Positions 3,144 to 39,639 of a stretch of 64,000 nt of DNA are shown here, piece after piece (positions within the stretch are counted from its first letter, which is position 1; each line of letters starts with the position of its first letter). The DNA is from Hippasteria phrygiana. Taxonomy: Eukaryota; Echinodermata; Asteroidea; Valvatida; Goniasteridae. Where the stretch lies: NCBI GenBank assembly GCA_037893225.1, contig JAZGUH010000182.1, positions 558,001-622,000 on the forward strand, in the 5' to 3' direction. The notes beneath the pieces are model-generated. The model did no database searches and was not told the DNA's origin. It saw only the letters and a list, made by a program, of their open reading frames with translations. A program made the translations under genes and the position numbers.

Positions 3144-3790
3144 AAGGGAACTTCAGACAAAGTTAGCCTAGGACCGAGTTGACCCGAAAGTAGCCCCGTA
3201 AATGCGGCTCCAATACTGGACTTCCTTCATATTGTGAGCCACACACCCACGGGTCTCCAAAAATTCCATAACGTTATAATGTAACTTATGGAGGGACATT
3301 AATCAATGTGTGGGGGCACTGTTCATTTGATGACTTATTTTTTTAAACAGGAAATTGTGATTACAATTGTAAATTTAAATTCAAATAGGCCTTATCAGAA
3401 TTTTTGAAATCATGATTGCCGTCTGCCTTTTATTCATTAAATAAGGCATGAATAAAGACAAAGATTTTGAGAAAATGTGAGTTTGAAGCATTTCAGTCAT
3501 ATCGACACTTCGATTTGTCATGTGTGCAAAATAATCACACCTTACTCTGCACATTTCAGGGAACAAAAAACCCCTGCTTTAAATATAAATTTTTCTTTGG
3601 GAAGACTTTGCTTTGGAGAATCCGATGAAATCCAAACTTGAATCAAATTGTTTCTTAGGACGTTCTCTTTAAAAAACAAATGTAAAAATTTATTTTAAAA
3701 AATTGATTAGCCTCCCTAACCATGTTTTCCTTCCTCCATGCCATGCCCTCTTACAAGTTACATGTACGTTCGTACCGGTAACTTGTAATT

Positions 3791-4101
3791 GGCTGTTTCG
3801 TAGTTTTACGAAACAGCCCTTGTTTTCGTTAAGATTTTTTTTTTTTTTTTTTTTTGGCTGTTTCGAAAGTTTTTCGAAACAGCCCTTGTTTTCGTTAAGA
3901 TTTTTTCTTTTTTTCTTTTTGGCTTTTCCGCAAATTGCGGAAAAGCCTTTGTTTTTGTTCAGATTTTTTTTTGGCTTTTCCGACAATCCGTCGGAAAAGG
4001 CGTTGTTTTTGTTCTGATTTTTAGCTTTTCCGCATACCTGCGGAAAAGGTATTGTTTTCGTTCCGGTTTTTTTTTGGCTTTTCCGAAATCCTTCGGAAAA
4101 G
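3791..4101 (+). repeat. array of six covarying hairpins (CRE-family 5' side)
   Basis: Six inverted repeats sit 48-65 bp apart. Arms: 3791-3802/3807-3818, 3856-3868/3872-3884, 3921-3933/3935-3947, 3975-3984/3990-3999, 4025-4034/4039-4048 and 4078-4087/4092-4101. Each is followed by TTGTTTTCGTT- or TTGTTTTTGTTC-like sequence and most then by a T tract. Arms are 10-13 bp and almost perfect, but their sequence changes from unit to unit (GGCTGTTTCGTA, GGCTGTTTCGAAA, GGCTTTTCCGCAA, CTTTTCCGAC, CTTTTCCGCA, CTTTTCCGAA) with matching changes in the opposite arm. Similar hairpins stand alone at 33635, 36456 and, inverted, at 28257, next to other copies of the family. Confidence 0.85.
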
Positions 4102-4129
4102 GCTTTGTTTTTGTTCTGATTTTTTTTTT

Positions 4130-5450
4130 TTTTCTTCTTCTTCTTCTTCTTCTTCTTCTTTTAGTTCTGACCAAAATCCCATAGACTTTGTACACGAATT
4201 TTCTGCGCGGCACTTTAGGTCTTAAAAAACCTCAGATCTTAACCAAACTTACCTCAAACATAGACCCTAAGCTGAAATAGTATGTCGAAGAGTGACGTCA
4301 TGATGACGTCATCACGTGTCACGTGACGTCATCTTAAAGGTGCGTTTTTCAAGGGCCCATATCTAGAGAACGGTAGGTCCGATTTCCTTCAAACCTGATA
4401 TGTTGGTAGGCTAGCTCGTGTTATAGATGAAATTTGAGGTGACGTCAAGATGACGTCATCATACGATTTTATAGTAATTTTTAAGTTTTTGAAATTCAAA
4501 GTTTCTTAAAGCCATATCTCATCAACAGAACATGCTAAATTCAAAATTCTTTTTGTAATAGCTTTGTTAGCTCCTATATTCTTTCACATACATTTGAAAA
4601 ATGTGTGACGTCATCATGACGTCATCAAAAATGTGCATTTCTGAAACACACATAAGGGTACGTCCGATCGTCATAAAAATTAGTGGGTAGGTAGATAGTG
4701 CTACTAGCATGTAAAATCCGAGGTGACGTCATGATGACGTCATCGGCTGATTTTCTGTGAATTTTTTTAGTTCTATCCCAAATCCCATAGACTTTGTACA
4801 CGAATTTTGTAAGTGGCACTTTGGTCACTAAACAACCTCGGATCTTAATCAGACTTAACACAAACATAGACCCTCAGCTGAAAATGTAAGCCGAAACGTG
4901 ACGTCATGATGACGTCATCACGTGTCATGTGACGTCATCTTAAATGTGCATTTTTCTAGGGCCTATATCTAGAGAACGGTAGGTCCGATTGCCTTCAAAC
5001 CTGGTATGTTGGTATGGTAGCTCGTGTTATAGATGAAAATTAAGGTGACGTCATGATCACGTCATCATACGATTTTACAGTAATATTAAAGTTTTTGAAC
5101 TTCAAAGTTTCTTAAAGCCATATCTCACCAACAGAACATGCTAAATTCAAAATTCTTTTTGTAATAGCTTTGTTAGCTCCTATATTCTTTCACATACATT
5201 TGAAAAATGTGTGACGTCATCATGACGTCATCAAAAATGTGCTTTTTTGAAACACATATAAGGGTACGTCCGATCGTCATACAAATTGGTGGGTAGGTAG
5301 ATAGTGCCACTAGCATGTAAAATCCAAAGTGACGTCATGATGACGTCATCGGCTGATTTTTAATGAATTTTCAGTTCTATCCTAAATCTCACAGACTTTG
5401 TACACGAATTTTGTATGCGGCACTTTGGTCACTAAACAACCTTTGTTTTG
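4130..5450 (+). mobile_element. CRE-family repeat, two ~605-bp tandem copies
   Basis: The landmark CCCATAGACTTTGTACACGA, near 4179 and 4785 with a variant near 5389, marks a period of about 605 bp. Each copy carries several TGACGTCATGATGACGTCAT blocks, a CACGTGTCA(C/T)GTGACGTCATC block and shared text such as ATCTAGAGAACGGTAGGTCC. The same text recurs at 29.1-31.2, 33.8-37.8 and 39.6-42.9 kb. The block starts with a long TTC run after the hairpin array. I infer a non-autonomous Helitron-like family (see copies with preserved 3' ends). This block has no recognisable 3' terminus: similarity fades after about 5430. Confidence 0.7.
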
Positions 5451-5454
5451 GGGG

Positions 5455-13615: not shown

Positions 13616-16600
13616 TCAGAATTTCACACTAACTGCTTCATGATAACTGTAATAAGTGGGACTTATGACAGCAGACACAGAGTCCAAATTTCTGACATAG
13701 ACATGGTCAATTAATGTTCCATTTTCTGTAGTTGCATTTGTAACACACTGCTTATAACCATGATCTTCCATCAATTTCTCAACTTGTGAACACTGTTTAA
13801 AAATATCTTCATTGAAATCACCCATTATAATACATTTGTTGGATATTTTGTGAAGTTCTTCAAGTAAAACTTTTAAATTGGTAATAAAAGCATTTATAGC
13901 ATAAGACACTGGTCTGTAAATTATTACAACTAAACATGACATATTAGAAATTATTTGAAATGCAATATATTCCATGTTCTGTACTGGCATGATTATCCTA
14001 CTGAATGTCTTATTCCTTCTACCATATACAGCAACACCTCCATGACTCTGTTGCTTTAATGTTTGAGTAGAATGACTTGAATTATCATATGAAAGACTTC
14101 TTAATTGATGATAACACTTAAATTCAGTCAATTCAGTGTTTGTGTACAGCTCTTCGTTAATCCATGTCTCAGTTAGACAAATAAAATCAGATGTCATAAA
14201 TTCATTATTACATTTTAAGTCTGTATAATGTTCCTTCAAACCTTGGATGTTATGCATCATGATAGTAGTCTCATTAGATATATCTCTCCTAGATTTATCT
14301 TCTTCAATAAATAATGGCATACTATTCAATGACTCATGTACTGCTTTATTACAATAAATGTATTTTTTATCAAACCTTACTATCACAAGACCATTCAATG
14401 AAGTGACTCTACTGAGAGCAACATACGCCTGTCCTGGTGAAAATGTACGCTCAAGACATACAACTGCTTTGTCTGTTGTCATTCCTTGTACCTTGTGGAC
14501 TGTACATGCCCAGGCTAATTTCAATGGAAACTGGTGTCGTACACACTGTTTACCAATACTTTCTTCTTCCATTTGAATAGGTACTGTGCCTCTATCAATA
14601 GACAAGAATGGTATTTGATTTTTCAATTTACAACCAACATTCTTATTGTCAAACTTAATTTCTACACATTTTGGGCCAGATTTATCAGCTAACAAAACTA
14701 TTTCACAGACAGTGCCAAATACTCCATTAACTAGTCCATCAGATACATCAATGTTCTTTGTTAACATCACTCTTGCTCCAACACCAAGCCACAATGATTT
14801 TGGTAAGCTAGTATATGTTGATTTGCTTACAGCTTTCACTTGTCGTTTCATTTTACCACCTTTTGAATCCTTCTGAATGTCCTTTGCCTCAATACATATA
14901 CAATCACTACACTTTGCAAACAATGTCTTAACATTGTGTTCATCAACCTGTTTGTTACATGGAAAGATATGTAATGCATCATCCCAATCTTCTCCAGTTT
15001 CACGAGCTTGCAACATTGCAACATCTTCATCTGATAATTTCTTTTGCTTTTCTTTTACACGTAGCCTGTTCAATGTTTCAGCAAATTGTACATCTTCCTT
15101 TTGTCTCATAATTTCTGTTAACTCTACTTTCTGGAAGATATCATTCCATAGGTCAGCTGTAACTGTTCTCTGGTACAATGACTTTCCCTTTACTGGAGGC
15201 AACTGATAAAAATCACCAACAGCTAAAATGCTGACATTTCCAAAGGGTGTATGATTACGTGTTTGCTTAATCTGACGTAGTCGTCCATGAATATAGCAAA
15301 GAATTTTGTGATCAACCATTGATATTTCATCTACAATCAAAATCTGAAGATCTTGCAATACATTACGCAGAGTACTCAACTTTTCTTCACCAAGAGGTTG
15401 ATATGGTAATCTAGAATCAGTTGTGATTGACAATGCACTATGAATTGTAGCACCATTGATATTAAATGCTGCAACACCTGTTGGGGCAGTAAGCAATACT
15501 GAGACATTGTCTGGATTTTGCACTATTCTTCTGAAAATCCTTGTTGCTTCATAGTACACTGACTTTATCAAATGACTCTTTCCCGTTCCGGCTCCACCCG
15601 TTAGAAACACATGGAACGGTTCAGGATTTTTACCATTGACTTTCTGCAGACACCAATCTCTGATCTTATTAAATACCTGTCTCTGTTGTACATTCAAGGA
15701 TCTCAGCAAACTCAGTGCTTCCTGCTTGGATACTTTAACTGAATGTGGTTCAATATTACACATTTTATCTCCTTTTTGTTCAGCTTTCAAATCAGGAATA
15801 TCACATTCACTGTCAGAATCTTCAATTATTGGCTTACGCTTTGCTTGACATTCAAGTCTATCTTCTTCACTCTTAGGACAAATCAAAGCCCAGGCATCTT
15901 CTTGAGGACCAAACTTTTCCAGATATTTCTCTGCTTCTTCAATTGATTCAATATTTGCTTCATACATGGAGCGATTATTTTCAACAATATTTATTACAGG
16001 TTTTAATTTATCATTAAAGCAAATAACACCATCTGTATAAAATTGTTCATAGGACTCAAACTGTGGTGGCTTCAACTGAACATCAACTTGATACGGAAGA
16101 AACAACTGCAACATACTATGATAGTACTTCTCAGAACACTTTGCCACTGAAAACCTGGGATATCTGATAACTGCTGGATCAGTTCGACTACGTTTCTGTA
16201 TATGACCCAAGCCATGTTTAAGTGCATACACTGGTGATCGTCTCCTTTCATTACATTCTTTAGATGTATTTGCATTATAAATAACTCTGTATTCTGAACA
16301 AAATGTAGCAAGGCACATTTCTTTAAATTTATCAGTATCTGGTCTTGCTTTATAACGATCAACTTTGTTAATCATGAAGATATCATCATCATCATCTTTA
16401 GATTTATTCTGAATTACACTCAATGGTAAGCTCATTCTAACAGGGTTTTCACCAACAGGTATAAATTCCACTTTCCTGGATCCTTCTTTCAATCTGAGAC
16501 TGCAAGCACGGAACACTGCTTCCTGAGCTGATATTTCACGATTATGCAGATACACACAACCAAGTTCCTTCATACTCTGTCTAGCATCTAAGTTCCCTTT

Positions 16601-19411
16601 TTGTGCCTCTCTTTGAGCATGTGATAACAATTGTCCCATTTCACGTTCAGCCTTGGACATGTATGACACAACATAAGCTACACAGGCATATGCATCACTG
16701 ATGTACTGAATGTCCATGTTTGCATTCCAGCATCTTATCAAATCGGGATTGTACAAATTAACCCATACATCTTGTGGTTCTCTCTTTAGTACAACACTTG
16801 CTTTGCTGCTCAGAACATTGTTAGCTTTCTCAAAATCATCTTGTGTTATTCCAATGCTTTTAAATAACTCAGAAGTTGCCATATCTTGATTATCCTCATT
16901 TTGTATTCCATTCCACACTGATTTCAATAATTTCTTGGCATCATTAGCTTTAGTGCTACCAACACTATCATCACTGTTTTTATCATTATCATCATCTATT
17001 GGATCTGGCTCAGTGATAAATGTTCTATTAGAAGGAGGTCGTGGAAAATTGAATCTGCATTCAGTACCTTTCTTTTTACATGACTTGGAGTGTTTTTTGC
17101 TATGTTGCTGCACACGACTCACAATCTCATTCAATTCCTCATCTTCTTCCTTTGACGGCAACTTGCAACTAATGTATGTGTCAATGAATTTTATAACATC
17201 AACATCACTGTCAATTCCCAATTTTGGTGCATTCTCAATCCAAAATATACAATGTGTATGTGGAGATCCTCTCTGCTGAAATTCCACTCTGTAAAAATAG
17301 TCCTTGACTTTGCCAATAGGTGCTGCTCTTGACATTATGACATCTTTCAGAAATGTATGAAATCGTTTGTCAAACATTCTGGCTACAGTCACAGGATTGC
17401 TTCGCAATACATTACATTTCTCATTCCAATCCAAATCTTCAATGTCTCTAGAATCACCTTGTTGTCTAAGTATTGTGTTTATAAATTCAGGCCATCTCAT
17501 GTCAGCTGCTGAAAATGAGCAGAACCATGTTGGTATTCCAAGTTGTCTAATCATCGCCATTACATCTTTTTGAGTTGATTGCCAATATGGGGGTGTACCT
17601 CTGATTGGTTTCAAGAATCTATATCCACTGTCCGATTTCAAAACACCTCTTAATTGTTCCCTGTCTTTAATCATGCTTGCATTAACACTCTCACCATCAT
17701 TCATTTTACCTGAACTTTGACGCAATGCAATTGAAACACTTGACATCACTTTTTGAATCTCTGACAAATACTGAGCATAAAAGATATATTGAGTACTCTT
17801 TGCAAATCTATTATCAGCATTCATTAGTCTGTTATGGAAATATCTACATTGTGTAACATTCACATCATGATCATCACTGAATATAGGTGTGCCTGTTGGA
17901 AATAATGCTGGGAAACATTTTGCCTCATTACCTTCTTCCATTAACACTCTAACTGGGTTATTTCCTTCACATGGTGCAACACAAAGTACATCATCAAAAT
18001 ACTGATCAAGAACTTCCTGTCCAATATCTGCTGGTTGCAAACATGTATCAAGTGGAATACCACGCAAGCGATCATCATCTGTTTCCTCATCACTATCACT
18101 TGTATCATCAGATTCACCAGCTTCATCATTTTCATTGTGCGCCATTTCATCTACATCTTCAGACACAGGATTGTCCCATTCACTGTTTATTTCTATATCC
18201 CTATACCACGTGTTATACTGCTTAAGGTATCTTAATGCACTTTCAACATGTTCCCTGTTCACAAACTGATACTGGTAATATCCTTTATAAGTTAATTTTC
18301 TCTTCAGCTTCACTCGAATCAACTGATTATCATTTCCACACCTTGGCAATGCTGTTACCGTGTCTGTTATATTTGATGGCACACATACAACTGGACCATG
18401 AACTGCATTCTGTCCTCCTTTAGGTAATGCTATCATCTTCATGAATGGTACATTAATTGCAATTAGATGTTCCTCCAAAGTGTTCAAACAACTCAATTCA
18501 ACTGGAATGTCTACAAGTGCTAAATTATTAACATTTGCCTCTGCTGGTACTTGATTACTGAGTAATTTCCTGTGACATGTATAGCATATCCACAGACATG
18601 ACCTACTTGATTCTGATACAAGACATTTGTTCCCACACTCCTCATTGCATGCACAGATATGTAAATACTTCTCAGATATACAACGAACATTCTTGTATTT
18701 ATTTTTATTACATTTGATAACTTGTTTCCGAAACAGAAGTTTATGACAAACTGCACAGACATACTCTGGTCCTTTTGATACTTCGTTCCTCCAATCCCTT
18801 GCAACATTGCTCATAATACGTGCATTCTTTTTCTTTCTAACTGAACGTTGTAAATTCATCCTTTTCATTTCTTCACGATAATGTTCATTGTTTTGGTACT
18901 TAATTTTTCCTACATCTATCAAACACCTACGATAATGTACATTACAACGGTACTTGCATTTCTGATAATTAATCACTTTCATTCTGAAACAGCTATTTAT
19001 ACAATACTTTCTTTTTATAGCTTTGATCATCCTGTTTCTATAAATGGCATTTTTATGATATTTATTCTTTGCATTGTCAATTTTCTTTTGCCTATGTGCA
19101 GCATTCTCATGGTACATTGTTTTTGTCCTGTTAATTTTCTTTTGTCTATGTGCAGCATCATCGTGGTACATTGTTTTTATCCTGTTAATTTTTGTTTGTC
19201 TATGTGGAGCATCATCGTGGTACATTGTTTTTGTCCTGCTAATTTTCTTTTGTCTATGTGCAGCATCATCGTGGTACATTGTTTTTATCCTGCTAATTTT
19301 CTTTTGTCTATGTGCATCATCATCATGGTACATTGTTTTTATCCTGCTAATTTTCTTTTGTCTATGTGCAGCATCATCATGGTACATTGTTTTTGTCCTG
19401 CTAATTTTCTT
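13616..19411 (-). CDS. Helentron protein, C-terminal part (Rep, helicase, endonuclease)
   Basis: This continues the same frame after the TAA. The first ATG is at 19387, and it runs to TGA at 13616. Numbering from that Met (1923 residues): rest of the repeat array to about 175; cysteine-rich zinc-finger-like region 205-280; Rep with [11 protein letters not shown] near 620, the HuH motif SPHTHCIFW near 710 and the two-tyrosine motif YVVSYMSKA near 909. A Pif1-like superfamily 1 helicase follows, with Walker A GGAGTGKS near 1267, DEISMVD near 1352, GDFYQLPPV near 1392, VHKVQGMT near 1632 and YVALSRVTS near 1658. Last is an endonuclease/exonuclease/phosphatase domain with [14 protein letters not shown] near 1857 and IDHVYVRN near 1894. 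The final motif reads YSYHEAV where many family members have S-D-H. All core catalytic motifs of Rep and helicase are present, so only the upstream stop argues against function. Confidence 0.93.
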
Positions 19412-19711
19412 TTATCTATGTGCAGCATCATCATGGTACATTGTTTTTATCCTGCTAATTTTCTTTTGTCTATGTGCAGCATCATCATGGTACATTTTGT
19501 TTATCCTGCTAATTTTCTTCTGTCTATGTGCAGCATCATCATGGTACATTGTTTTATCCCTGTTAATTTTCTTTTGTCTATGTGCAACATCATCGTGATA
19601 CATTGTTTTCATCCTATCAATTTTCTTTTTTCTATGTGCAGCATCATAATGATACATTGTTTTTGTCCTGTTAATTTTCTTTTGCCTGTGTGCATCATTC
19701 TCATGGTACCT
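19064..19711 (-). repeat. 54-bp in-frame repeat array (12 clean 18-residue units)
   Basis: Twelve consecutive 54-bp units encode variants of [18 protein letters not shown]. More divergent units continue on both sides (KYREN-, KYHKN-, KYRCN-, KYQNN-type, roughly 18850-19064 and 19711-19880). Conserved positions are Y-H/R, a D/N pair, H/Y-R and a basic KK-I stretch. The array lies between the OTU domain and the zinc-finger/Rep part. Strong charge and regular spacing suggest a helical nucleic-acid or protein-binding array, but I know of no named domain. The antisense strand is also open over this stretch (18881-19777), a shadow of the period. Confidence 0.92.
19412..19414 (-). pseudogene. single nonsense codon in the Helentron frame
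   Basis: On the minus strand the sequence reads CAT AGA TAA AAG, whereas neighbouring repeat units have CAT AGA CAA AAG (His-Arg-Gln-Lys) at this place. The codon is therefore a single C-to-T change, in a repeat unit that is otherwise normal. The frames on both sides are identical in phase, with eight sense codons between the stop and the next Met. It could be a real inactivating mutation, an assembly or read error in a tandem array, or a read-through site; the first two are simpler. Confidence 0.9.
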
Positions 19712-22700
19712 GATTTTTGTAGTATCAATTTTTTTCTTCCTATACAAAGCATTTTCTCGATATTTCAACTTTGCTGATTTTTGTTTATTGCCAGCATTCT
19801 CTCTGTACTTCTTTTTGCCATATTCAATTTCATGTTGCCTGTACTGCTCAGATTTGTGATATTTCTCTTTCTTTCTACATCTTTTTGACTCACTATAATT
19901 CACATCATTTGCATATCTTTTGTGATCTATAATCCTATGCTTTGCTTTCTTGATCTTCACATCATATTCTGAATCTTTACTTTCCTTTTTCAACTGATAC
20001 CTTTCTCTAGCTCTTTCTCTATTCAACTGCCGCTTCAATGTCACGTTAACATGTTTCCGTCTCTTACAAGTTGAATGTTTTAATGCTTCTGGTTTTGATT
20101 TAGTATTATATTTGTCCTTATCTTTACATGCATTACTACTTTGTAGCTCACACTCCTTGTTACAATCAGGTTCCTGCTCACTGATGTCTGATACATTTGT
20201 AATTAACTCATGTACAGTTAAAACTAAATCATAATGCACTCTTCTCCTGTGGTACAAATAAATACCTACTGAACTTGATGGTCCATCACTATCACCACAT
20301 ATACCAGAAAATACATACCACTTATTTGCATCATCAAATGTAAATACATTTACACCCAACATGTGTGCTATTACCATGATTTCAACCTCTGTAGCCCATG
20401 TACCACTATCAGAAACTCTTTCTCTTATTACATAGTCTTCCACTGTCATGTGATTTTCCCGTAAGAAACACTGAAATTTAGCTGCATTTTCCAACAAGTA
20501 ATTAACAGTTGCTATCCTGAGTTTCATGTGATTATCTTCAGTTCCTGATATAGCACAAGAAATAGCTCTAAAGAAACAGTTACCATCACCTTGAATTTTC
20601 CTTATGGTGTCAGGTGCTCCCATTTTTTCGCATCTCTTACAAATCTTATCAGCATCAAGACACATTTTGGTCACACCAAATTTCCGACACAATGCAATCT
20701 TACTTTTATTAGTTAATGGAACAAATTTAAAAGTGACTGGTTGAGTAACTTTTATGATTTCTAGGTCATTATCACTGTTATCAATGCATGTAATTTCCTG
20801 ATCAATATCTGTGGCATGTTCAGCATCTGACAAAACTGTGTGTACTGTATTTCTTTTCGATCCACAATTTTTTTCAAACTGTGTACCTGCATTTCCTTTG
20901 GTTGAATATTTTGTTTCCATTCTGTGTGTGTTACTTCTGGTGCATGCACTATTGCCATTGTCAATGTCTTCATGACTACAGATGCTCAGATCATCATTAA
21001 CCCATATATTAACACCTGTAATTTCAAATTGCTCAGTATCAGATAGATTCATAGATCTTCCAAGTTCCATACAATACTTGTACACACCTTGCCATGAAGT
21101 TACACATTTCATCAAGCTTCTTCCGTCAGAGTCTTGCCAACCATTGTGATTTCTAGAATGTGAATCAAAAATATAGTACATTCCATCTTGAGCAATTACT
21201 GAAAATGTATTCCCATTGAAACATATGAAACATGCAGTATATTTCTGAAGTGTCTGCTCCAGTGCACTACTCAATGGAATCAAATTAAATTCAGATAGAT
21301 TTGTTTCTCCTTCAAACATACCACACACAGATTCATGAAACTTCATATTGAAATGCTGATTAAAAACATCTATTTCATCAGGTAACTCATTGATTAACAA
21401 ATACTCATTCATCATTGTAGAACTACGAGATAAATAACTGTATAATTCATTTCCAGTATTCAATACAAAATCCAGATCAGTAGAACACCATTTGTTCAAG
21501 TTCCTAATTCTGCTATACATTGCTGCACACAAACTGTTTGCAACACACTGTTTGCCACTATTCTCAGCAAATCTCCAGTCCCCTTGATGAAAACTTCCTT
21601 GAACAACTCTACCATCAATTTCTCTTGTCTTTTGAATGCTTGTGCAAAAACACCTGGTTCTACATGTACATGTTTTATTTTTCACTACATCAGATTTGTT
21701 TATCTTAAATGACCTATTTCTTTGTGGCAACATTCTCAGTTTCTTTGTACTGCCTGTAGCTTCTGAACAATTTTTGAAACTTTCTTCAGCTTTCCTTTTT
21801 GATTTGCCTTTCTCATTTTGCTTTTCAGTTACTACCAACACGGGTTCCTTGTTACTGCGCAAACTATATCGTGACTTCATTCCCTTTTCCATATTCTCCT
21901 CCATTTCATTTCCAATACTGTGTTCTTTAACATCCTTAACACATTGAACATTGTTCGCTTGTGCTTCTAATAAGTTAATACGTGTAGATTTCTTTTCATT
22001 TACATTTTCATTTCTCTTATCTCCATTTTTACGACTAGTGTCCTTGTTACTAGTCATTTTTTTTCTACGCAATGAGTAACCGCCACTTTGTTCTTTTATG
22101 CACTGTTGCTTGCCTAGATTTTTCAACTTCATGTTAGCACTGCTTACACACACATTATCTCTGCTTTTGTTAATCTCACCTTCGGGTTCATTAATCTCCT
22201 TAATGCCTTCCAGTGTGCAGTAATCATGTTTAGCATACATCATCACTGATTCTTCATTAACATCACCTTCATTCAGGGACATCTGGAATATGTTTTCATC
22301 TGTAGGAATGCCAAGATCATATAACAAAGACACAGTGTAATTACATCGTCCACATTTAGAACACATCCATGAAATTGGTTTCCGGAGCACAATATGATCA
22401 ACATTTGAAAATCCCATGCAATTGACATGATACCATATGTTGCATGTATCACAAGTCACAATTCTATCAAATGGAGCAGTTACTTCATCACACAACCAAC
22501 ACTGCCTACTAGATGTATGCTTCACTGAATGATCATCACTTTCCATTTTGTTCATTTCAAGAACAATTCGATTTTTTTTCAACTTCTTGACGTCATTCTT
22601 TGCTTCTGTGCCTGAATTCTTACTCTCAGAAAGTAGCTTATGCTGAAGCTGTTTTTTTGACCTTGTGGACACATACATTGTACTGACTTGGTCCTCTTTA

Positions 22701-23593
22701 CATTTACAATCTGTCTTATTCTGCATGTTCTTTAAAACATAACTAAGACTTCTTCGAGTATGACTTTGTATGTTTTTCTGAGTTTTTTCATGGCATCTTC
22801 TGTCTTCTTTATTCATACGACATTCCACTACGTTACCACTCCGCAATCTGTGAAATGCCTGTTTTCGCTCATTCCTTCTGATCTTTTTCCTATTTGGTTT
22901 GGAAACCCTCTTTGGCTCTTTACAATACTCAACTACACATTCCAATACCTGATTTCGACTACAACAGCTCTGTCCACTTGCCTTCAACCTTATCAATGCA
23001 TTTTGATAACCTTTTCTCTTTGGTGTCACATGGCCAACTTTAAACTTCCTGAACACAGTCACTTTTCGTCTCTGCTCATGGTTTGCAGTCCTTTTGTGTC
23101 TTTCTTTACTCTGTGTTGTCTGCTTCTCCACATTACTGATGTCAAACACTTCTGAATTTACATTTCTGTGCTTACATTTTCTCAGCTTAAATTTGCTCAA
23201 CTTATATTTGCTCAACTTATATTTGCTCAACTCAGTGCATCTTTTCTTTGAACTTATCCAGTTGCAAGGCAAGAGGGCCCCAGTACCGGAAGCAAGCGAA
23301 TTTGGTCTCACTTGTCCCCGTACATACACACATTTGTCGTGTGCCAACTGGTTTGCGCACTGCCTGGCAGTCACAAGCAGACGACTTCTCTGAGGAGGTG
23401 CCAACCTCAGAGCATTTGCATGATGAGGTGATGTCAACTTGCTGGAGGATGAAATAGACCAAACACAGGACATAGTAGAAGAATGAAATGGAATCATGAG
23501 GGGAGTGGAATGAGGTAATGACTGCAAGACAGACAAACATTCATCAAAGTGATATCCAAGAATGCCCCGGTGCACAGTCTGTGTAGCCTTCAT
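19412..23593 (-). CDS. Helentron protein, N-terminal part (PHD, protease-like, OTU)
   Basis: This is 1393 codons from an ATG at 23593 to the in-frame TAA at 19412. The ATG lies just downstream of TGTCTTGCAG, a good splice acceptor (exon edge about 23596), so an upstream exon may exist. Approximate domain order: basic low-complexity region 1-350; a PHD finger at 360-420 with a Cys4-His-Cys3 pattern (CWLC, CDTC, WYHVNC, CSKC); a region at 660-880 with GKQCVANSL and FDSHSRNHNG that looks like a papain-fold cysteine protease; an OTU cysteine protease at 990-1125 with DGNCFFRA (catalytic Cys) and RVHYDLV (catalytic His); then the first half of an 18-residue repeat array. In Helitrons these accessory domains accompany the Rep/helicase. 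Their role is not established and is assumed to be protein processing or deubiquitination and chromatin contact. Confidence 0.85.
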   Translation of the reverse strand: MKATQTVHRGILGYHFDECLSVLQSLPHSTPLMIPFHSSTMSCVWSISSSSKLTSPHHANALRLAPPQRSRLLVTARQCANQLAHDKCVYVRGQVRPNSLASGTGALLPCNWISSKKRCTELSKYKLSKYKLSKFKLRKCKHRNVNSEVFDISNVEKQTTQSKERHKRTANHEQRRKVTVFRKFKVGHVTPKRKGYQNALIRLKASGQSCCSRNQVLECVVEYCKEPKRVSKPNRKKIRRNERKQAFHRLRSGNVVECRMNKEDRRCHEKTQKNIQSHTRRSLSYVLKNMQNKTDCKCKEDQVSTMYVSTRSKKQLQHKLLSESKNSGTEAKNDVKKLKKNRIVLEMNKMESDDHSVKHTSSRQCWLCDEVTAPFDRIVTCDTCNIWYHVNCMGFSNVDHIVLRKPISWMCSKCGRCNYTVSLLYDLGIPTDENIFQMSLNEGDVNEESVMMYAKHDYCTLEGIKEINEPEGEINKSRDNVCVSSANMKLKNLGKQQCIKEQSGGYSLRRKKMTSNKDTSRKNGDKRNENVNEKKSTRINLLEAQANNVQCVKDVKEHSIGNEMEENMEKGMKSRYSLRSNKEPVLVVTEKQNEKGKSKRKAEESFKNCSEATGSTKKLRMLPQRNRSFKINKSDVVKNKTCTCRTRCFCTSIQKTREIDGRVVQGSFHQGDWRFAENSGKQCVANSLCAAMYSRIRNLNKWCSTDLDFVLNTGNELYSYLSRSSTMMNEYLLINELPDEIDVFNQHFNMKFHESVCGMFEGETNLSEFNLIPLSSALEQTLQKYTACFICFNGNTFSVIAQDGMYYIFDSHSRNHNGWQDSDGRSLMKCVTSWQGVYKYCMELGRSMNLSDTEQFEITGVNIWVNDDLSICSHEDIDNGNSACTRSNTHRMETKYSTKGNAGTQFEKNCGSKRNTVHTVLSDAEHATDIDQEITCIDNSDNDLEIIKVTQPVTFKFVPLTNKSKIALCRKFGVTKMCLDADKICKRCEKMGAPDTIRKIQGDGNCFFRAISCAISGTEDNHMKLRIATVNYLLENAAKFQCFLRENHMTVEDYVIRERVSDSGTWATEVEIMVIAHMLGVNVFTFDDANKWYVFSGICGDSDGPSSSVGIYLYHRRRVHYDLVLTVHELITNVSDISEQEPDCNKECELQSSNACKDKDKYNTKSKPEALKHSTCKRRKHVNVTLKRQLNRERARERYQLKKESKDSEYDVKIKKAKHRIIDHKRYANDVNYSESKRCRKKEKYHKSEQYRQHEIEYGKKKYRENAGNKQKSAKLKYRENALYRKKKIDTTKIRYHENDAHRQKKINRTKTMYHYDAAHRKKKIDRMKTMYHDDVAHRQKKINRDKTMYHDDAAHRQKKISRINKMYHDDAAHRQKKISRIKTMYHDDAAHR

Positions 23594-23674
23594 ACCTGCA
23601 AGACATTAAAACATACAAAAATACCTAAATACATGTATTTATTTCAAAACCATACTCTTTATAAGCCCCATTAA

Positions 23675-25609: not shown

Positions 25610-26575
25610 TTCCAATAGCTTAAACACGTACACAGATAAGCCTATGACTTTGTTTAACATTCGATCATTGACATATCAGTATTATTAATACTGACATACA
25701 GCAATGTACAGTGACAAGCCAATGACCGATTATTAAAAAGTCGTACGAATAACGTTATACACGAGGCGAACACAACAATACTCATAAAAACCATAGGTCT
25801 GTTACTCATAGCATTTGACTTTAAGTCCCAATTGACGAAACATATGAATAATTCTCTCTTACAATACACAATGAAATAAAAACTTTACAAATCGTCAATA
25901 AAATCAATATTTTCTTCATAAATTCCATGCCATATGTATTGATATACTCCACCTTCAGCTTTCTATAATGAGATACGGTGTCTGATACCCGACCCTGTCA
26001 GGCATTTTACAATACAGGAACCAGACTAATGAAAAAGAGGGCGCTCTTGCATTTTGATCATCCTGTATTTGATTTACTCTGCCACGAGTACCGGCAAGAC
26101 CGTAGTGTAATGATGATAACAACGATTTTTGATATTTCTAAATCTCATGATTTGATTTGCTATTTATAATTTAAAAAATTAATAAAAACTGTTCGAACTT
26201 TTAAAAAAAGGAAGCAGGTACATAACCTTATAATGTTTTATCATTGAAAAAAGAAAGAAATGTAAACAGTTTTTAATTTAGATTTCTCAGTCATCCCATT
26301 TAAAATTAGATTTCATAAAAAAAACAAAAAATTTAAAATTAAAAAATTATTACAAATAATTAGTGGTACGGTGTTTGTTCATCCACTAACGAACCAATCC
26401 TCCCGGAGGTAGCATTCGTATGTACCATTCGATGTTTTCGCTCAGACCAAGATAAATCGATTCAATAACAATATTATGACAAGAGGTTTTTCGTCAATAT
26501 GACGAAAAAAGCTGCTCCTCAAGGAAGTTTATGATGTGCATCGTATAAATCCATATTCTACTACACATACAAAAG
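25610..26575. other. no recognisable feature
   Basis: AT-rich, with A/T runs at 26160-26350 and only short open frames. Nothing repeats within the window as far as I can see. Confidence 0.4.
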
Positions 26576-26582
26576 TAAATAT

Positions 26583-28291
26583 GGCTCAGGTGAAATTGTG
26601 GCCACATCCCGATATTTAACCCAATCGGACCTGTATGTCTGTAGATTTAGGCCTTAGAAAAATCCGAGTTTAATGTGACGTCATATGACACGTGATGACG
26701 TCATCATTTCGTCAGTTCAATTTTCATCTATCACAAATGATGGTCTGAGCACATACCGAGATTCAGCTTAATCGGACCTGTAGTTCTGAAGATGTAGGCC
26801 TTAGAAAAATGCACCTTAAATGTGACGTCGTATGGCACGGGATGACGTCATCATTACGTCAGTTCAATTTTTATCTATCACACATGATGGTCTGGGCACA
26901 TCCCGAAATTCAATCCAATCGGTATAGTTCTCTAGATGTTGCCTTTAGAAAATTGCACCTTGAATGTGACGTCATATGGCACGTACTGATGTCATTACGT
27001 CAGTTTAATTTTTCTGTGTAACACATGATGGTCTGGACACATCCCGAGATTTAACCCAATCGGACCTGTAGTTCTAAAGATTTAGGCCTTAGAAAATTGC
27101 ACCTTTAATGTGACGTCATATGGCACGCGCTGATGTCATTACGTAAGTTAAATTTTCCTGTGTAACACATGATGGTCTGGGCAGATCCCGAGATTTAACC
27201 CAATTGGACCTCTAGTTCTAAAGATTTAGGCCTTAGAAAAATGCACCTTTAATGTGACGTCATATATCACGTGATGACGTCATCATTTCGTCAGTTTAGT
27301 TTGCATCTATCACACATCATGGTCTTAGCACATACCGAAATTCAGCCCAATCGGACCTGTAATTCTGTAGATGTAGGCCTGAAAAAATGCACCATTAATC
27401 ACGTTGGAATTGTCTGAAATCATAGTCACGAGAGGGCGCTATACACATTTCCAGCTCAGACACTTTCGCACAGTCCCCAAATTCCACCTCATTCGTGCAA
27501 TTGTGCAACCGCTAAGGTTGTCTGCTGCCCTCAACACATTGGTAGATTTGCCCTAACGTGCGGGATGAATTAGACTACTTCCCGCACCATACGTTTTATC
27601 CTAATCCCGTGTTAGAAGTCCGAAGGACAACGGAAGGACCGATAACGAGTCTAAATCAGTCCACACATAAATTCACAACGCGCTACAAAATACCCACGGT
27701 TATCGCCTTCCCAGAATTCTTATGTTATCTTATTGCTTTTCGCTAAATTTTGAAATGGGCCTTATTTCACACTGGAATGAGCCACGATCATTTCCGCTTG
27801 CAGTAAGGTCGACCAAAATACAATGTATGACTTGTCTTATGCTTGCTGTCATAGGAGGTTGCTAAACACGCAAAATTGTGCTTTCAGTTAATGGCCTCCA
27901 GATGACGTCATGATGACGTCACGAACATTTTACTCAAACAGAAACATTTTGGCCGCCCAACTAATACTTTGCAATAGATATAAACTTCACATCTCGATTG
28001 GTTTTTCAGATATTGAGCTTGCAAGCGTGGAAAATTGAATATTCATGAGGCCACAATTTAAAAACTACTGACGTCATCATTACGTCATTGCTTTAGGACC
28101 ATCTACGCTATATGGCCTTTGTTGTGACAACTCGAGGGGACAACACGAGCTTTAACAGTATGAAATTAGGTGGGAAAGGGAGTTGTGTACAAAACCTATG
28201 GCAAAAAGGGCAGAAGAAAAAGAAAAAAAAAAAAAAAAAATCTTAACGAAAACAATAGCTGCTCCGCAGCGCTTCGCGCCGGAGCAGCTAA
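26583..28291 (-). mobile_element. CRE-family element in inverted orientation
   Basis: Five roughly 145-bp tandem units (landmark GATGGTCTG at about 26740, 26885, 27029, 27172 and 27318) read, on the minus strand, like the CRE family elsewhere: CRE block, CACGTG-type block, TTAAAGGTGCATTTT, CCGATTGG. The minus-strand 5' side at 28160-28290 holds the expected landmarks in order: a hairpin (arms 28257-28266/28280-28289, AGCTGCTCCG), TTGTTTTCGTTAAGA, a T run and an approximate CCATAGG...TTTGTACAC. It is the only inverted copy I see. The stretch from 27400 to 28150 is weakly similar at best and may include unrelated sequence. Confidence 0.65.
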
Positions 28292-29084: not shown

Positions 29085-31226
29085 GTTAGCTCCTATATTC
29101 TTAAAAAACCTCAGATCTTAACCAAACTTACCTCAAACATAGACCCTAAGCTGAAATTGTATGTCGAAGAGTGACGTCATGATGACGTCATCACGTGTCA
29201 CGTGACCATCTTAAAAGTGCGCTTTTCAAGGGCCCATATCTAGAGAACGGTAGGTCCGATTGCCTTCAAACCTGGTATGTTGGTATGGTAGCTCGTGTTA
29301 TAGATGAAAATTAAGGTGACGTCATGATGACGTCATCATACGATTTTACAGTAGTATTAAAGTTTTTGAACTTCAAAGTTTCTTAAAGCCATATCTCACC
29401 AACAGAACATGCTAAATTCAAAATTCTTTTTGTAATAGCTTTGTTAGCTCCTATATTCTTTCACATACATTTGAAAAATGTGTGACGTCATCATGACGTC
29501 ATCAAAAATGTGCATTTCTGAAACACACATAAGGGTACGTCCGATCATCATAAAAATTGGTGGGTACGTAGATAGTGCCACTAGCATGCAAAATCCGAAG
29601 TGACGTCATGATGACGTCATCGGCTGATTTTTTTATGAATTTGTAAATGTTTCAAATTTCATTGTACTCTTAAAATTTTGCACTTCTTCAAATGCCATGA
29701 ACTTCAAACTTGGCATATGCATTGACTATCTACTCGAGATGGGTGCCGAATCATGACGTCATGATGACGTCATCACATGTCACGTGACGTCATCTTAAAT
29801 TTGCATTTTTGAAGGCCCTATATCTATTTTTTTTCTGCTTCTTATTTTAGTTCTATCCCAAATCCCATAGACTTTGTGCATAGATTTTCTGATCGGCACT
29901 TTTGTCATCAAACAACATCGAATCTTAGTCAGAGTTAGCATAGGTATAGACCCTGATGCAAAGTCGTGCCGCGAAGAGTGACGTCATAATGACGTCTTCG
30001 TGTGGCATGTAACATGAACTTAAAGGTCAAGTTTGGAGTACGAAATGTTAATCATAAAATAATCTCAGATCTTAAACTTAGCAAAGACATAGACCTTCTG
30101 ATACTTTATGTTAAATAAAAAAGAAAAAAAGGAAAAGCCATGCGTATGTTTACAACAGACGCACATTTTTTGGCGTTTCCGCTAGAGCAGGAAAGCCTTT
30201 GTTTTTGTTCTGTTCGCGCGATTGTGTAGTTTAGTACACTTTCGCCCAGGCATGAACACAATCTACTTGAAAATTGTTCGTTTTGCCACATTCAGAACAA
30301 AGGGCTACGTCGAAGAACATCTGCAGGGGTTTTTTGGAGTGAAATCGTTAGCTAAGAGGTAACAAAATACGTGATTGCGCAATACCCAGCTTTACACGGA
30401 TATATAGCTGGTGGGAGAGTAGTTGACCGAGCCAAAACGTGACACAACGTAAGAAAATCGTATTTTCCGCCTTAAAAAACCTTTCCAAATCACAAAAGCA
30501 CGTGTCATTGGGATTCAGAGAAGTCTACTTTAGTAACAAAAAATGGCTTTTGGAATAATCAAATACTCCAGAAGCTAACATGAACACAATTAATACAGAA
30601 ATCCTAAATACACAATACCCACTATTTTGGTTTCTTCTTAAACACGAATTTTGTCTGCGGCACTTTGGTCACTAAACAACATCAGATCTTAAGCAAACTT
30701 AACCCAAACATAGACCCTAATCTGAAATTGTGTGCCGAAGAGTGATGTCACGATGACGTCATTATGTGTTACGTGATGTCATCTTAAAGGCTCATTTTTC
30801 AAGGGCCCATATCAAGAGAACCGTAAGTCCAATTGCATTCAAACCTGGTATGTTGGCTAAACAAGTACATGTTATAAATAAAAATTGAGGTGACGTCATA
30901 ATGACGTCATCATCTGATTTTTATGGTAATTTCAAAATTTTAACGTTAAAGATTCTTAAAACCACATCTCATCAACAGAACATGTTCAATTCAAAATTCC
31001 TTTTGTAATAGCTTTGTTAGCTCGTACATTCTTTTATATAAATGCGAAAAATTACTCATAATGACGTCATTAAAGGCATGATTTCTTGAAAGACATATGG
31101 ATAGACCATGTCTAATCGTCACGAAACTTGGTGGTTAGGTAGATTTGTCACTAGTTTACAAAATTCGAAGTGACATCATAAAAACATATGGAAAAGCCCT
31201 ATGTTCTTAAAAACATAGACCTCTAG
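29085..31226 (+). mobile_element. CRE-family copies ending in hairpin plus CTAG
   Basis: The block starts abruptly inside the family text (GTTAGCTCCTATATTC), so its 5' side is truncated. It holds at least two family segments (29100-29830, 30640-31200). Between them is a different stretch (about 30010-30640) with a degenerate hairpin at 30172-30198. That stretch is shared with 36455-36950, including TTGTGTAGTTTAGTACACTT. The right end has a hairpin with arms CTATGTT (31199-31205) and AACATAG (31212-31218), then CTAG at 31223-31226 followed by T. That layout, hairpin then CTRR then T, is the Helitron 3' signature. Confidence 0.7.
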
Positions 31227-32970
31227 TTTCTTCTTCTTCTTTTTCTTCTTCTCCCCAAAACCCCATAAACTTTATGCACGTTTTTTCTAATCGGCACTTT
31301 TGCCCTTAAACAAACTTCAATCTTAATGAGAGTTGGCATACACTGAGACCCTGTACTGAACTCGTGCATATTACTCTGACGTCATGATGACGTCATCATG
31401 TATCAAACTACAAGCAATTAAAGATTAGCAGATTTAATCTTTGAAAATCAATATAAAATCAACCGTGAGAGCCCGGAACTTGATTTTTGTGGGAATTGAT
31501 AGTATAATCCAGGATCTTTATTTTATCTCGTGTGCGTCAAATCACGTGACCCTTCCTTCCGGTCCAAACCGGAAGTGCCTCATCATTTGAAAGTGGAAAA
31601 AGATGGGAACTTGCTTTCAACGATGTTGGTCTCCGACTAGGTTGTACTTCACCAAAAAATTATTTGTGACGTCATAAAATGTTCGAGCGCCCTCTAGCGG
31701 CAAGTTGAAAAATGCTTAAAATGAATAATCGGTCGATGTGTGTGGCGAAGTTTGCTGAAATCACTCTATAATTGATGTATGTAATCGGCTTCACGCTAAG
31801 AACAAGTTGAGGTGGAGAAAAATTGATGACGTCACCAAACCGGAAGTTGCAATAAAAAGACCTTTAAACCTAAACAATTTGCTGAAAAATCAACCGCAAG
31901 AGATATAATGCAGATTTCTGCTTCAGATAGCATAGTTTACATAGCTCTCGAGTTTTCCGATAATGACGTCACGATGACGTCATCAAGTATCAGATTACAA
32001 GCAACCAAAGATTTCTAGATTTAGTTTTTGAAAATCAATATAAAATCAACCGTGAGAGATCTGATTTTGCTTTAATGTGAACTGATAGAATAATCCAGGG
32101 TCTTCATTTTTTGTATTACGTGCAAAGTCACGTGACACTTCCTTCCGGTCTAAACCGGAAGTGCCTTATAACTTGAAAGTTTAATTTTTGAAAATCAATA
32201 TAAAATCAATCGAGAGAGATCTGATTTTGCTTTTTACGGGAACCGATAGAATAATCCAGGGTCTTCATTTTTTATATTACGTGCAAAGTCACGTGACCCT
32301 TCCTTCCGGTCGAAACCGGAAGTGCCTTATAATTTGAAAGTTTAATCTTTGAAAATCAATATAAAATCAATCGAGAGAGATCTGATTTTGCTTTTTACGG
32401 CAACTGATAGAATAATCCAGGGTCTTCATTTTTTATATTACGTGCAAAGTCACGTGACCCTTCCTTCCGGTCTAAACCGGAAGTGCCTTATAACTTGAAA
32501 GTTTAATCTTTGAAAATCAATATAAAATCAATCGAGAGAGATCTGATTTTGCTTTTTACGGCAACTGATAGAATAATCCAGGGTCTTCATTTTTTATATT
32601 ACGTGCAAAGTCACGTGACCCTTCCTTCCGGTCCAAACCGGAAGTGCCTTACAACTTGAAAGTTTAATCTTTGAAAATCAATATAGAATCAATCGAGAGA
32701 GATCTGATTTTGCTTTTTACGGGAACCGATAGAATAATCCAGGGTCTTCATTTTTTATATTACGTGCAAAGTCACGTGACCCTTCCTTTCGGTCCAAACC
32801 GGAAGTGCCTTATAACTTGAAAGTTTAATCTTTGAAAATCAATATAAAAATCAATCGAGAGAGATCTGATTTTGATTTTTACGGGAACCGATAGAATAAT
32901 CCAGGGTCTTCATTTTTTATATTACGTGCAACGTCACGTGACCCTTCCTTCCGGTCCAAAACGGAAGTGA
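31227..32970 (+). repeat. 162-bp tandem repeat, seven units, with CRE flank
   Basis: After a TTCTTCTTC run and a family-like 5' section (31260-31420), a unit of about 162 bp appears once at 31436-31590 and then in tandem from about 32020 to 32970. The landmark AATCCAGGGTCTTCATTTT is at about 32092, 32252, 32415, 32577, 32739 and 32902. Each unit carries GTCACGTGAC (a perfect palindrome) and an 8-bp inverted repeat CTTCCGGT/ACCGGAAG. Units 3-7 are nearly identical, so amplification is recent. The 31600-32015 insert between units 1 and 2 is different sequence with its own CRE blocks. Confidence 0.85.
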
Positions 32971-33247: not shown

Positions 33248-33630
33248 CTAGAGAAAACAATTTGCCACTCGAACAGCCGCGCATCGCGCATATACATCAT
33301 TTGTACACAATGTACAGTGCTAACCCCACAAATAGAGTTGTAAATGATTCCCTTTTAAAATTCTGTGTTTTTAATTCTCCAAATTAAGACCATAATGACG
33401 TGAACCAACATGTACCAAAACACATCAAAGTGCGATACTTATAATCGCAAAGAAAACATATCTACAAATCTAAGGTATATTTCATGCAACCTTTATTATA
33501 CTTTCACTCTTAATACTTTCACTCTTTAAACTTACTCTTTATTCCTTAATTCCTTTCATGTAAAAAAAAAAGAAAATGGAGAGCGGAAAAGCTATGTGTA
33601 CTGTTCATCAACAGTCACACATCTCTCGTT
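33248..33630. other. no recognisable feature
   Basis: AT-rich spacer with short repeated ACTTTCACTCTT words at 33500-33540. No coding signal is seen. Confidence 0.35.
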
Positions 33631-33634
33631 TTTT

Positions 33635-34899
33635 GGCTGTTTCGGAAACTTTTCCGAAACAGCCCTTGTTTTCGTTAAGATTTTTTTTTTTTTCTTTTTT
33701 TTTTTTTTTTCTTTTTTTTTTTTTTTTTCTTTTTCAGCCAAATGCCCATAGCATTTGTACACGTTTTCTTTCTTACCGGCACTTTGGCTACTTTTATGCT
33801 GCCGATTGGCTTTAAACTTGGCAGACACTTAGACTAACTACTCAGAATGTATGCCGAACATTTACGTCATGATGACGTCATCACGTGATTTTTTATGAAT
33901 TTTTGAAATTTGAAAATCGTAAAATTCTTTTCAATATATCTGGCGAACAAAACAAGATATTTTCAAAATTCTTTTTGTTATAGCTTTGGTATGTCTCAAA
34001 GATATCCCCTAAAAAGGAGAAAATGTGTGACGTCATGATGACATCATCAAAAATGTGCTTTTTTAAAACACATATAAGGATAGGTCCGATCGTCATGAAA
34101 ATTGGTGGGTAGGTAGATAGTGCCACTAGCATGGAAAATCCAAAGTGACGTCATGATGACGTCATCGGCTGATTTTCTATGAATTTTTAGTTCTATCCCA
34201 AATCCCATAGACTTTGTACACGAATTTTGTAAGAGCCACTTTGGTCACTAAACAACCTCAGATCTTTATCAGGTTTAACTCAAACAGAGACCCTAAGCTG
34301 AAAATTTATGCCGAAGAGTGACGTCATGATGACGTCATCACTTGTCATGTGACGTCATCTTAAAGGTGCATTTTTCAAGGGCACATATCTAGAGAACCGT
34401 AGGTCCGATTGCATTCAAACCTGCTATGGTGGTAGACAAGTACGTGTTATAGATGGAAATTGAGGTGACGTCATGATGACCTCATCATACGATTTTATAG
34501 TAATTGTAAAGTTTTTTAACCTTAAAGTTTCTTAAACCCATATCTCTTTAACAGAACATGCTAAATTCAAAATTCTTTTTGTAATAGCTTTGTTAGCTCC
34601 TATATTCTTTCACATAAATGGGAAAATGTGTGACGTCATCATGACGTCATCAAAAATATGCTTTTTTGAAACACATATAAGGGTAGGTCCGATCGTCATA
34701 AAAATTGGTGGGTATGTAGATAGTGCCACCCGCATGCAGAAGCCGAAGTGACGTCATGAGACCTCATCGGCTAATTTTCTATAATTTGTTAATTTTTTTA
34801 ATTTTATTGAAATTTTTGAAATTTCATTTTAATCACCAAATTTTACACAAAAACACCGAAACAGCCCTGTGTTTGTCCACAAACACTATTGGCTCTAGT
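33635..34899 (+). mobile_element. CRE-family copy with 5' hairpin and 3' CTAG end
   Basis: It begins with a 14-bp hairpin (GGCTGTTTCGGAAA, 33635-33648, and its complement, 33651-33664), then TTGTTTTCGTTAAGA, a T/C tract and AGCCAAATGCCCATAGCATT. The body has repeated TGACGTCATGATGACGTCAT blocks. It ends with CGAAACAGCCCT, a hairpin GTGTTTGT/ACAAACAC (34870-34877/34880-34887) and CTAG at 34896-34899 followed by T. It is one of the most complete copies and the best candidate for defining both ends. There is no open frame of note. Confidence 0.75.
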
Positions 34900-37850: not shown

Positions 37851-38005
37851 TATTTTTGTGTACCTAATTCCAAGTTCCCATGATCATAGCTCACTCCAGC
37901 GTCAAAATATACCCATTTCAATATTTAGCTCCAAAACAATATGATAACAAAGGAATGTTTGGAAGGCAGTGTAACCATGGGTGTTATGTAGCGCGTCCTC
38001 GGGGC

Positions 38006-38223: not shown

Positions 38224-38247
38224 TTAATTCATCCTATAACTACACTC

Positions 38248-38363: not shown

Positions 38364-38369
38364 CATAAT

Positions 38370-39600: not shown

Positions 39601-39639
39601 AGTTGATCTGTAGTCTTTTTTCAAGTCGTTAGACAAGTC

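What the first reader, a model, noticed from the sequence alone, without database searches (positions are those of the whole stretch)
3791..4101. Six neighbouring hairpins whose two arms change together
Successive hairpins keep perfect or near-perfect pairing while the stem sequence itself changes. GGCTGTTTCG pairs with CGAAACAGCC in two units; GGCTTTTCCG or CTTTTCCG pairs with its own complement in four. The bases next to the loop also change in pairs (TA/TA, AAA/TTT, CAA/TTG, AC/GT, CA/TG, AA/TT). A further copy at 28257 uses an unrelated stem (AGCTGCTCCG) with the same TTGTTTTCGTTAAGA neighbour. Double compensatory changes imply that the fold, not the sequence, is kept, or that stems are regenerated by copying one arm from the other. 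For a rolling-circle element, this could be a terminator or origin hairpin that diversifies between subfamilies.
Basis: partly seen in the sequence, partly recalled or inferred. Interest (0 to 1): 0.8.

Follow-up and report, generated by a model that had tools for sequence, protein, structure and literature searches.

The report
Nested rolling-circle transposon end hairpins
The six hairpins are the left ends of mobile DNA elements that inserted one inside another at the same spot, each keeping its own self-matching hairpin, a trait already known for this type of transposon but seen here on a large scale.

Summary
Six hairpins lie at 3791-4103; another, with a different stem, lies at 28256-28290 (-). 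They are best read as the 5' ends of non-autonomous Helentron/Helitron2-type rolling-circle transposons (HINEs): 5' subterminal repeat plus inverted copy (the hairpin), T/C microsatellite, body with tandem repeats, then the same word and a palindrome at the 3' end. The left-end tail has 7,290 exact genomic copies (reversed control 2).

Stems differ between subfamilies with both arms, and usually the 3' word, changing together: 29 of 30 adjacent left/right end pairs matched in a coordinate-only replicate. Arrays arise because elements insert into the T tract directly behind a resident's hairpin. Right ends then follow in last-in-first-out order (33 of 42; permuted mean 16.9), and one locus has a paralogous empty site. 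Arm copying is not supported: 15 single-arm variants but 0 double variants in two loop families.

Compensatory changes in Helitron2 5' hairpins and multiple 5' termini by self-insertion are in print (PMC3627910, PMC5148889). New here: scale, the three-word test and the nested order. The link to the Helentron gene in the window was not tested, and one genome-wide denominator was not obtained.

The parts
3791..3818 (+). left-end hairpin 1, class C: GGCTGTTTCG / CGAAACAGCC, loop TAGTTTTA
3856..3884 (+). left-end hairpin 2, class C, loop AAAGTTTTT
3921..3947 (+). left-end hairpin 3, class F: GGCTTTTCCG / CGGAAAAGCC, loop CAAATTG
3973..4001 (+). left-end hairpin 4, class f: GGCTTTTCCG / CGGAAAAGGC, loop ACAATCCGT, G.G mismatch at pair 2
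4023..4050 (+). left-end hairpin 5, class f: AGCTTTTCCG / CGGAAAAGGT, loop CATACCTG
4076..4103 (+). left-end hairpin 6, class f, loop AAATCCTT
4104..5442 (+). TTGTTTTTGTTCTGA tail, T/TTC tract and body of the innermost (class f) element; truncated near 5442, no right end detected before 26 kb on this strand
   Evidence: 4128-5442 is 97.3% identical over 1,316 bp to the element behind the left end at C1:938038; right-end scan
28256..28290 (-). left-end hairpin, class B: AGCTGCTCCG / CGGAGCAGCT, of a separate element running to lower coordinates
26480..26519 (-). right end of the class B element: AGGAGCAGCT (9/10 to CGGAGCAGCT) + palindrome TTTTTCGTCAATATGACGAAAAA (26487-26509)
   Evidence: same arrangement in L096-L098
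30130..30171 (+). right-end-like sequence, class F word GGAAAAGCC + imperfect palindrome + T run
30172..30197 (+). degenerate F-like left-end hairpin GGCGTTTCCG CTAGAG CAGGAAAGCC (7/10)
31189..31236 (+). right end, class F: GGAAAAGCC + CTATGTT..AACATAG + CTAGTT
33584..33633 (+). right end, F-like word GGAAAAGCT + palindrome + CTCGTTTTTT, directly followed by the next left end
33635..33664 (+). left-end hairpin, class C, loop GAAACTTTTC
34857..34907 (+). right end, class C: CGAAACAGCC + GTGTTTGTCCACAAACAC + CTAGTT, followed by a T tract and a headless body
36396..36446 (+). right end, class C, 11-bp palindrome
36456..36484 (+). left-end hairpin, class C, loop AAAGTTTTT, on a body homologous (84.0% over 1,007 positions) to that behind the F-like hairpin at 30172
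40562..40606 (+). right end, class C, followed by a headless body
42880..42925 (+). right end, class C
13616..19411 (-). open frame: DUF6570, Helitron_like_N (Rep), PIF1 helicase, Exo_endo_phos (23.5 bits, just below its cut-off of 24.5): Helentron-type protein
19412..23605 (-). abutting open frame: PHD, Herpes_teg_N, OTU

Best explanation
The hairpins are the 5' (left) ends of HINE-like non-autonomous relatives of Helentron/Helitron2 rolling-circle transposons. SHOWN: each left end is T|arm-loop-complementary arm + NTTGTTTTYGTTNNGA + T/C tract; the element ends with a further copy of the same word, a palindrome and CTAGTT; the stem word is subfamily-specific and its copies usually agree within an element. 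SHOWN: arrays of left ends arise by insertion of new elements into the T tract directly behind a resident's hairpin, so bodies and right ends follow in last-in-first-out order and inner bodies stand without a hairpin. INFERRED: the 5' hairpin is needed for mobilisation, so only copies with matching words spread and paired changes are carried by the founder of each subfamily; following Bao and Jurka, the 5' arm can pair either with its neighbour (hairpin) or with the 3' word, and that switch marks where rolling-circle replication ends. INFERRED: T-rich target preference sends new copies into resident T tracts.
For: Anatomy: matching the published HINE plan and Helitron2 plan. 121 of 123 hairpins are preceded by TT. 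Covariation on 32 distinct hairpins: 361 of 384 cells Watson-Crick over 12 pairs; slid by 1-3 columns 0.22-0.40 against 0.94; 8 of 12 pairs show two or more Watson-Crick types; 10-bp arms 304 of 320 against 247 when right arms are permuted (max 272 of 5,000); loop-side pairs 11-12, permuted within the same stem, 57 of 64 against 44.5 (p 2e-4). Left/right agreement: 29 of 30 adjacent pairs (C-C 19, T-T 10, T-C 1; Fisher p 4e-7); 16 of 18 in the three fetched regions. Nesting: 33 of 42 right ends match the top of the stack, permuted mean 16.9, p 5e-5; first-in-first-out 17 against 19.4. Replicate: 43 of 55, across-group null 28.4 (p 5e-5), within-group null 37.2 (p 0.005), FIFO 32. After a right end: 27 of 49 headless body behind a T tract, 14 another left end, 8 other. 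Empty site: left 388 bp (99.5%) and right 1,225 bp (99.8%) of the locus at C7:594 kb match an uninterrupted 1.6-kb copy at C7:575 kb; about 12 kb of other elements sit in the T tract. 56 of 105 left ends with upstream held lie behind another left end, 22 behind a right end, 27 elsewhere.
Against: 9 of 42 right ends do not fit the stack; right ends outnumber left ends at C1:903 kb (22 against 18), so losses or recombination also act, and duplicated blocks in the regions make events non-independent. Mismatched pairs exist: L105 (T left, C right) and C1:917078 (C left, T right). No right end was found for 4 of 16 single elements (L099, L100, L102, L111), and none closes the six-hairpin array in the window. 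Agreement of the two ends follows from common descent and does not by itself prove that matching is required. No function was tested. No Helentron with these ends was identified.
Confidence: 0.87

Rival explanations
1. Arm copying: one arm is repeatedly rewritten from the other by hairpin-templated repair or strand switching, so paired changes arise in single events in any copy.
For: Arms are near-perfect in most sampled units (103 of 123 at 10/10) and pairing extends to loop-side bases that the 3' word does not share.
Against: 49 hairpins with one C/T-changed arm persist genome-wide; by loop, 15 of them belong to the families AAAGTTTTT (5) and GAAGTTTTC (10), in which no double variant exists. 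The f subfamily keeps a G.G mismatch (11 of 11 sampled f units). The 3' word, kilobases away, changes as well, which local copying does not explain.
Confidence: 0.06
2. The hairpin arrays expand as minisatellites by slippage or unequal crossing-over between T tracts; stems then diverge.
For: Some neighbours are identical (for example the AAAGTTTTT units of L079); C1:92 kb and C1:151 kb share a flank of about 1.5 kb but hold 3 and 6 hairpins; block duplications are visible at C1:915-928 kb.
Against: Neighbouring units often belong to different subfamilies with different tails; right ends and bodies follow in reverse order; an empty site shows a 12-kb insertion in the T tract.
Confidence: 0.1
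3. Composite transposition: an element with several left ends moves as one unit from its outermost left end to the first right end, as proposed for Fusarium Helitrons, so arrays are copied rather than built in place.
For: Precedent in PMC5148889. Near-identical four-unit arrays at C7:575 kb and C7:594 kb; left ends without closing right ends in the window.
Against: The C7 pair is identical on both sides of the array and of the body, as expected of a block duplication; class T has fewer exact left ends (1,615) than right ends (2,026), not the excess of left ends that this predicts.
Confidence: 0.15

Closest known systems
Helitron2 elements with asymmetric terminal inverted repeats (Bao and Jurka 2013, PMC3627910; passages seen)
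   Same: 5' repeat 0-2 bp from the end forming a 5' hairpin, 3' repeat upstream of a 3' hairpin, T-rich target, compensatory changes that keep both features (two related Culex elements).
   Different: Here the stem states are many within one genome (32 distinct hairpins in 123 units), the three words are tested in pairs of ends, and hairpins stand in arrays.
HINE / DINE-1-like elements of Helentrons (PMC4067079 and PMC7492417; abstract and passages of the first, passages of the second)
   Same: Left module of 5' subterminal repeat, complementary inverted repeat and microsatellite; tandem-repeat core; right module of 3' subterminal repeat and palindrome; insertion in TT.
   Different: The left modules pile up in nested stacks; no autonomous partner with these ends was found here.
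FoHeli elements of Fusarium oxysporum with multiple 5' termini (PMC5148889; passages and section 10)
   Same: Short 5' segments repeated, explained by self-insertion.
   Different: There, one 3' terminus per composite is reported; here a body and right end usually follow for each left end, in reverse order.
Pearl elements of bivalves and Tsp elements of sea urchin (only reference entries seen; content recalled)
   Same: Dispersed elements with tandem-repeat cores, listed by PMC4067079 as DINE-1-like.
   Different: Not compared here.

Membership tests
HINE (non-autonomous Helentron) | 5' subterminal repeat at the 5' terminus with complementary inverted repeat close by | tested here: met
   123 units, arms 10/10 in 103; TT directly before the hairpin in 121
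HINE (non-autonomous Helentron) | microsatellite in the left module and tandem repeats in the core | tested here: met
   T/C or TTC tract behind each left end; about 145-bp and 285-bp tandem arrays in the bodies
HINE (non-autonomous Helentron) | 3' subterminal repeat complementary to the 5' one, followed by a palindrome | tested here: met
   10 of 16 single elements matched within one base, 1 mismatched class, 1 an array, 4 with no right end found; 29 of 30
HINE (non-autonomous Helentron) | insertion between T and T without target-site duplication | tested here: inconclusive
   TT on the left and one empty site inside a T tract; a duplication of Ts alone cannot be told apart
HINE (non-autonomous Helentron) | an autonomous Helentron in the same genome shares the ends | not tested
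Helitron2 | hairpins at both ends and asymmetric terminal inverted repeats | tested here: met
Helitron2 | Rep/helicase protein falling in the Helitron2 clade | not tested
   no tree was made; the window protein has Rep, Pif1 and a weak endonuclease match
canonical Helitron1 | 5'-TC, 3'-CTRR, no 5' hairpin, insertion between A and T | tested here: not met
   5' hairpin directly after TT
structured RNA of a known Rfam family | match at gathering threshold | tested here: not met
   window 3500-6000, 0 matches

The most novel reading that the evidence does not exclude
The stem word acts as a private recognition code: left arm, inverted copy and 3' word change as a set, so that closely related subfamilies living nested in one another (classes C and T differ by one base pair) are each cut out only at their own right end. 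The T tract behind the hairpin is at the same time a landing site for relatives, which makes each array a dated stack of insertions. In keeping with a code, one body family carries two different stem sets: the bodies behind the C hairpin at 36456 and the F-like hairpin at 30172 are 84.0% identical over 1,007 positions, and the next right ends are class C and class F.
Probability: 0.25. Interest if true: 0.7.

Novelty: new member of a known kind. Interest (0 to 1): 0.42.

Why it matters
How Helentron-type elements choose their ends is an open question. This genome offers thousands of copies with many natural stem variants, so the published idea that the 5' repeat switches between a 5' hairpin and pairing with the 3' repeat could be tested by statistics and assay. 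The nested stacks give the order of insertion directly (inner is younger), which can date subfamilies against one another, and they explain tandem hairpin arrays that repeat finders would list as minisatellites.

Tried and rejected
Considered first that the hairpin was the 3' end with the reading direction reversed; rejected when right ends with their own palindrome were found on the other side of the body. Looked for the ends of the Helentron gene in the window by hairpins on either side of it; nothing convincing. Coordinates of Rep matches and left ends gave no evident pairing by eye; no count was made. Rfam: no match. Age order from the stacks: C or T outside F or f in 7 neighbouring pairs, the reverse in 1, A outside f in 1; left as a hint because F/f tracts are shorter targets. 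The genome-wide number of C-C hairpins was never obtained, so no full 2x2 table is given. In one search left ends other than classes C and T, and left ends with a mismatch in the anchor, were not included; one left end (C12:477098) was added.

Full report
CHECK OF THE OBSERVATION. The window is C182:558001-622000 of an unnamed 944-Mb genome. Six hairpins stand at 3791-4103 and one more at 28256-28290 on the minus strand. Arms match 10/10 in the first three and 9/10 in the last three of the array. The array folds far better than shuffles (z -14.5). The tail TTGTTTTYGTTHNGATTTTTTT has 7,290 exact matches in the genome and its reversed control 2. The closest listed proteins to the Rep region of the window's Helentron gene by identity are from sea stars (Patiria 72%, Asterias 74% over 90% of the query), although the best E-value is a fish protein at 49%; an echinoderm host is likely, not shown.

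ANATOMY. In the window the elements have a left end (hairpin, NTTGTTTTYGTT tail, T/C tract), a body with tandem repeats of about 145 and 285 bp, and a right end: a copy of the word complementary to the left arm, a palindrome and CTAGTT. This is the published plan of HINEs (passages) and of Helitron2 (passages). Of 16 single elements or arrays followed downstream, 10 have a right-end word agreeing with the left end within one base, 1 disagrees (L105), 1 is an array (L110) and 4 have no right end found.

COVARIATION. 133 candidate units were taken from the held loci and the window; 10 without a hairpin were dropped; 123 remain, with 32 distinct hairpins. Over 12 pairs 361 of 384 cells are Watson-Crick, 6 G-T and 17 mismatched; sliding the partner by 1-3 columns gives 0.22-0.40 instead of 0.94. 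Eight of 12 pairs have at least two Watson-Crick types. Permuting right arms lowers 304 of 320 to a mean of 247 (highest 272 in 5,000). Pairs 11-12 next to the loop, permuted only among hairpins with the same stem, still exceed the null (57 of 64 against 44.5, p 2e-4). These controls do not remove relatedness: copies of one subfamily share one history. Thus the 1,615 T-T hairpins are probably one amplified change, since 27 of 29 sampled share one loop.

ARE ARMS COPIED? Genome-wide 49 hairpins carry the C/T change in one arm only; the pattern, read on both strands, takes in both kinds. By loop, 5 belong to the family AAAGTTTTT and 10 to GAAGTTTTC. The double change in those two families was not found at all. 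Single-arm variants therefore persist and were not seen to be turned into doubles. The C-C total, needed for rates, was not obtained.

THREE WORDS, NOT TWO. In a set built from coordinates outside the three fetched regions, with classes C and T only, a left end and the next right end agree in 29 of 30 cases (Fisher p 4e-7); this set includes the C and T single elements. In the fetched regions 16 of 18 agree. The start of the body goes with the loop: CAGCCAAATG with GAAACTTTTC, CAGACTTTTG with AAAGTTTTT and TAGTTTTA, CAGACTATTG with GAAGTTTTC of spacer T, TTAGTTCTATCC or TTAGTTCTGACC with class f, though class T has two body types. One body family stands behind two different stems in the window (36456 and 30172, 84.0% over 1,007 positions).

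WHY ARRAYS. If a new element lands in the T tract just behind a resident's hairpin, hairpins pile up on the left while bodies and right ends follow in reverse order. At C1:151 kb the left ends run T C C C T T and the right ends T T C C. Over C1:150-166 kb, C1:903-943 kb and C7:573-613 kb, 33 of 42 right ends match the top of the stack; with right-end classes permuted within each region the mean is 16.9 (p 5e-5), and the first-in-first-out reading gives 17 against 19.4 (one search typed by hand gave the same). Outside these regions 43 of 55 match (across-group null 28.4, p 5e-5; within-group null 37.2, p 0.005; FIFO 32); T C arrays closed by C T occur at C2:1704 kb, C4:288 kb and C11:169 kb. 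Of 49 right ends in the fetched regions and the window, 27 are followed by a T tract and a body without a hairpin, 14 by a left end, 8 by something else. The cleanest proof is an empty site: at C7:594 kb the left 388 bp (99.5%) and right 1,225 bp (99.8%) match a continuous 1.6-kb element at C7:575 kb, and about 12 kb of other elements lie between, in the T tract. Of 105 left ends with upstream sequence held, 56 lie behind another left end, 22 behind a right end and 27 elsewhere; for 18 no upstream was held.

AGAINST. Nine of 42 right ends do not fit; right ends exceed left ends at C1:903 kb; some blocks there and on C7 are duplicated, so events are not independent. Two mismatched pairs were seen (L105; C1:917078). 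The array in the window has no right end, its innermost body stopping near 5442.

MECHANISM. Shown: architecture, co-variation, agreement of ends, insertion in the T tract. Inferred: the hairpin is required for movement; following Bao and Jurka the 5' repeat pairs either locally or with the 3' repeat, and this switch sets the end of replication. Nothing here tests function. Whether the Helentron in the window moves these elements is unknown, because its ends were not found.

KNOWN OR NEW. PMC3627910 already reports the 5' hairpin and compensatory mutations in two Helitron2 elements, and PMC5148889 multiple 5' termini and self-insertion. Searches of the held library listed no paper that I recognised from titles and passages as describing last-in-first-out stacks; that is no proof of absence. 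I therefore call it a new member of a known kind, with an unusually clear record of nested self-insertion.

Noticed in passing
window 36456-37480 and 30172-31230: Homologous bodies (84.0% over 1,007 positions, starting right after the hairpin) carry different left-end stems, class C and a degenerate F-like one; a module exchange or a set-wise change of the end words.
   Followed up: partly
window 13616-23605 (-): Helentron-type gene in two abutting open frames; other genome copies show single open frames of over 3,000 aa in the same search. A 54-bp tandem repeat (19079-19709) lies across the break. Described only.
   Followed up: no
window 4180-5440, 26599-27399, 33860-42600: Bodies hold dense TGACGTCA palindromes, which I recall as the cAMP response element core; thousands of mobile copies could scatter such sites.
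   Followed up: no
window 10182-12178: 36/108-bp minisatellite of about 56 units between the Helentron gene and the hairpin array.
   Followed up: no
window 32020-32969: 161-bp tandem repeat, 5.9 copies, 96% matches.
   Followed up: no
L001 and L006 (C1:90.8 kb and C1:149.9 kb): About 1.5 kb of near-identical flank precedes arrays of 3 and 6 hairpins: block duplication or read-through transposition.
   Followed up: no
L061, L091 (C2:3032834, C12:67346): Left ends with further stems (AGTGGGTCCG, AGCAGTTCCG) and the same tail; no right end found within 3 kb.
   Followed up: partly
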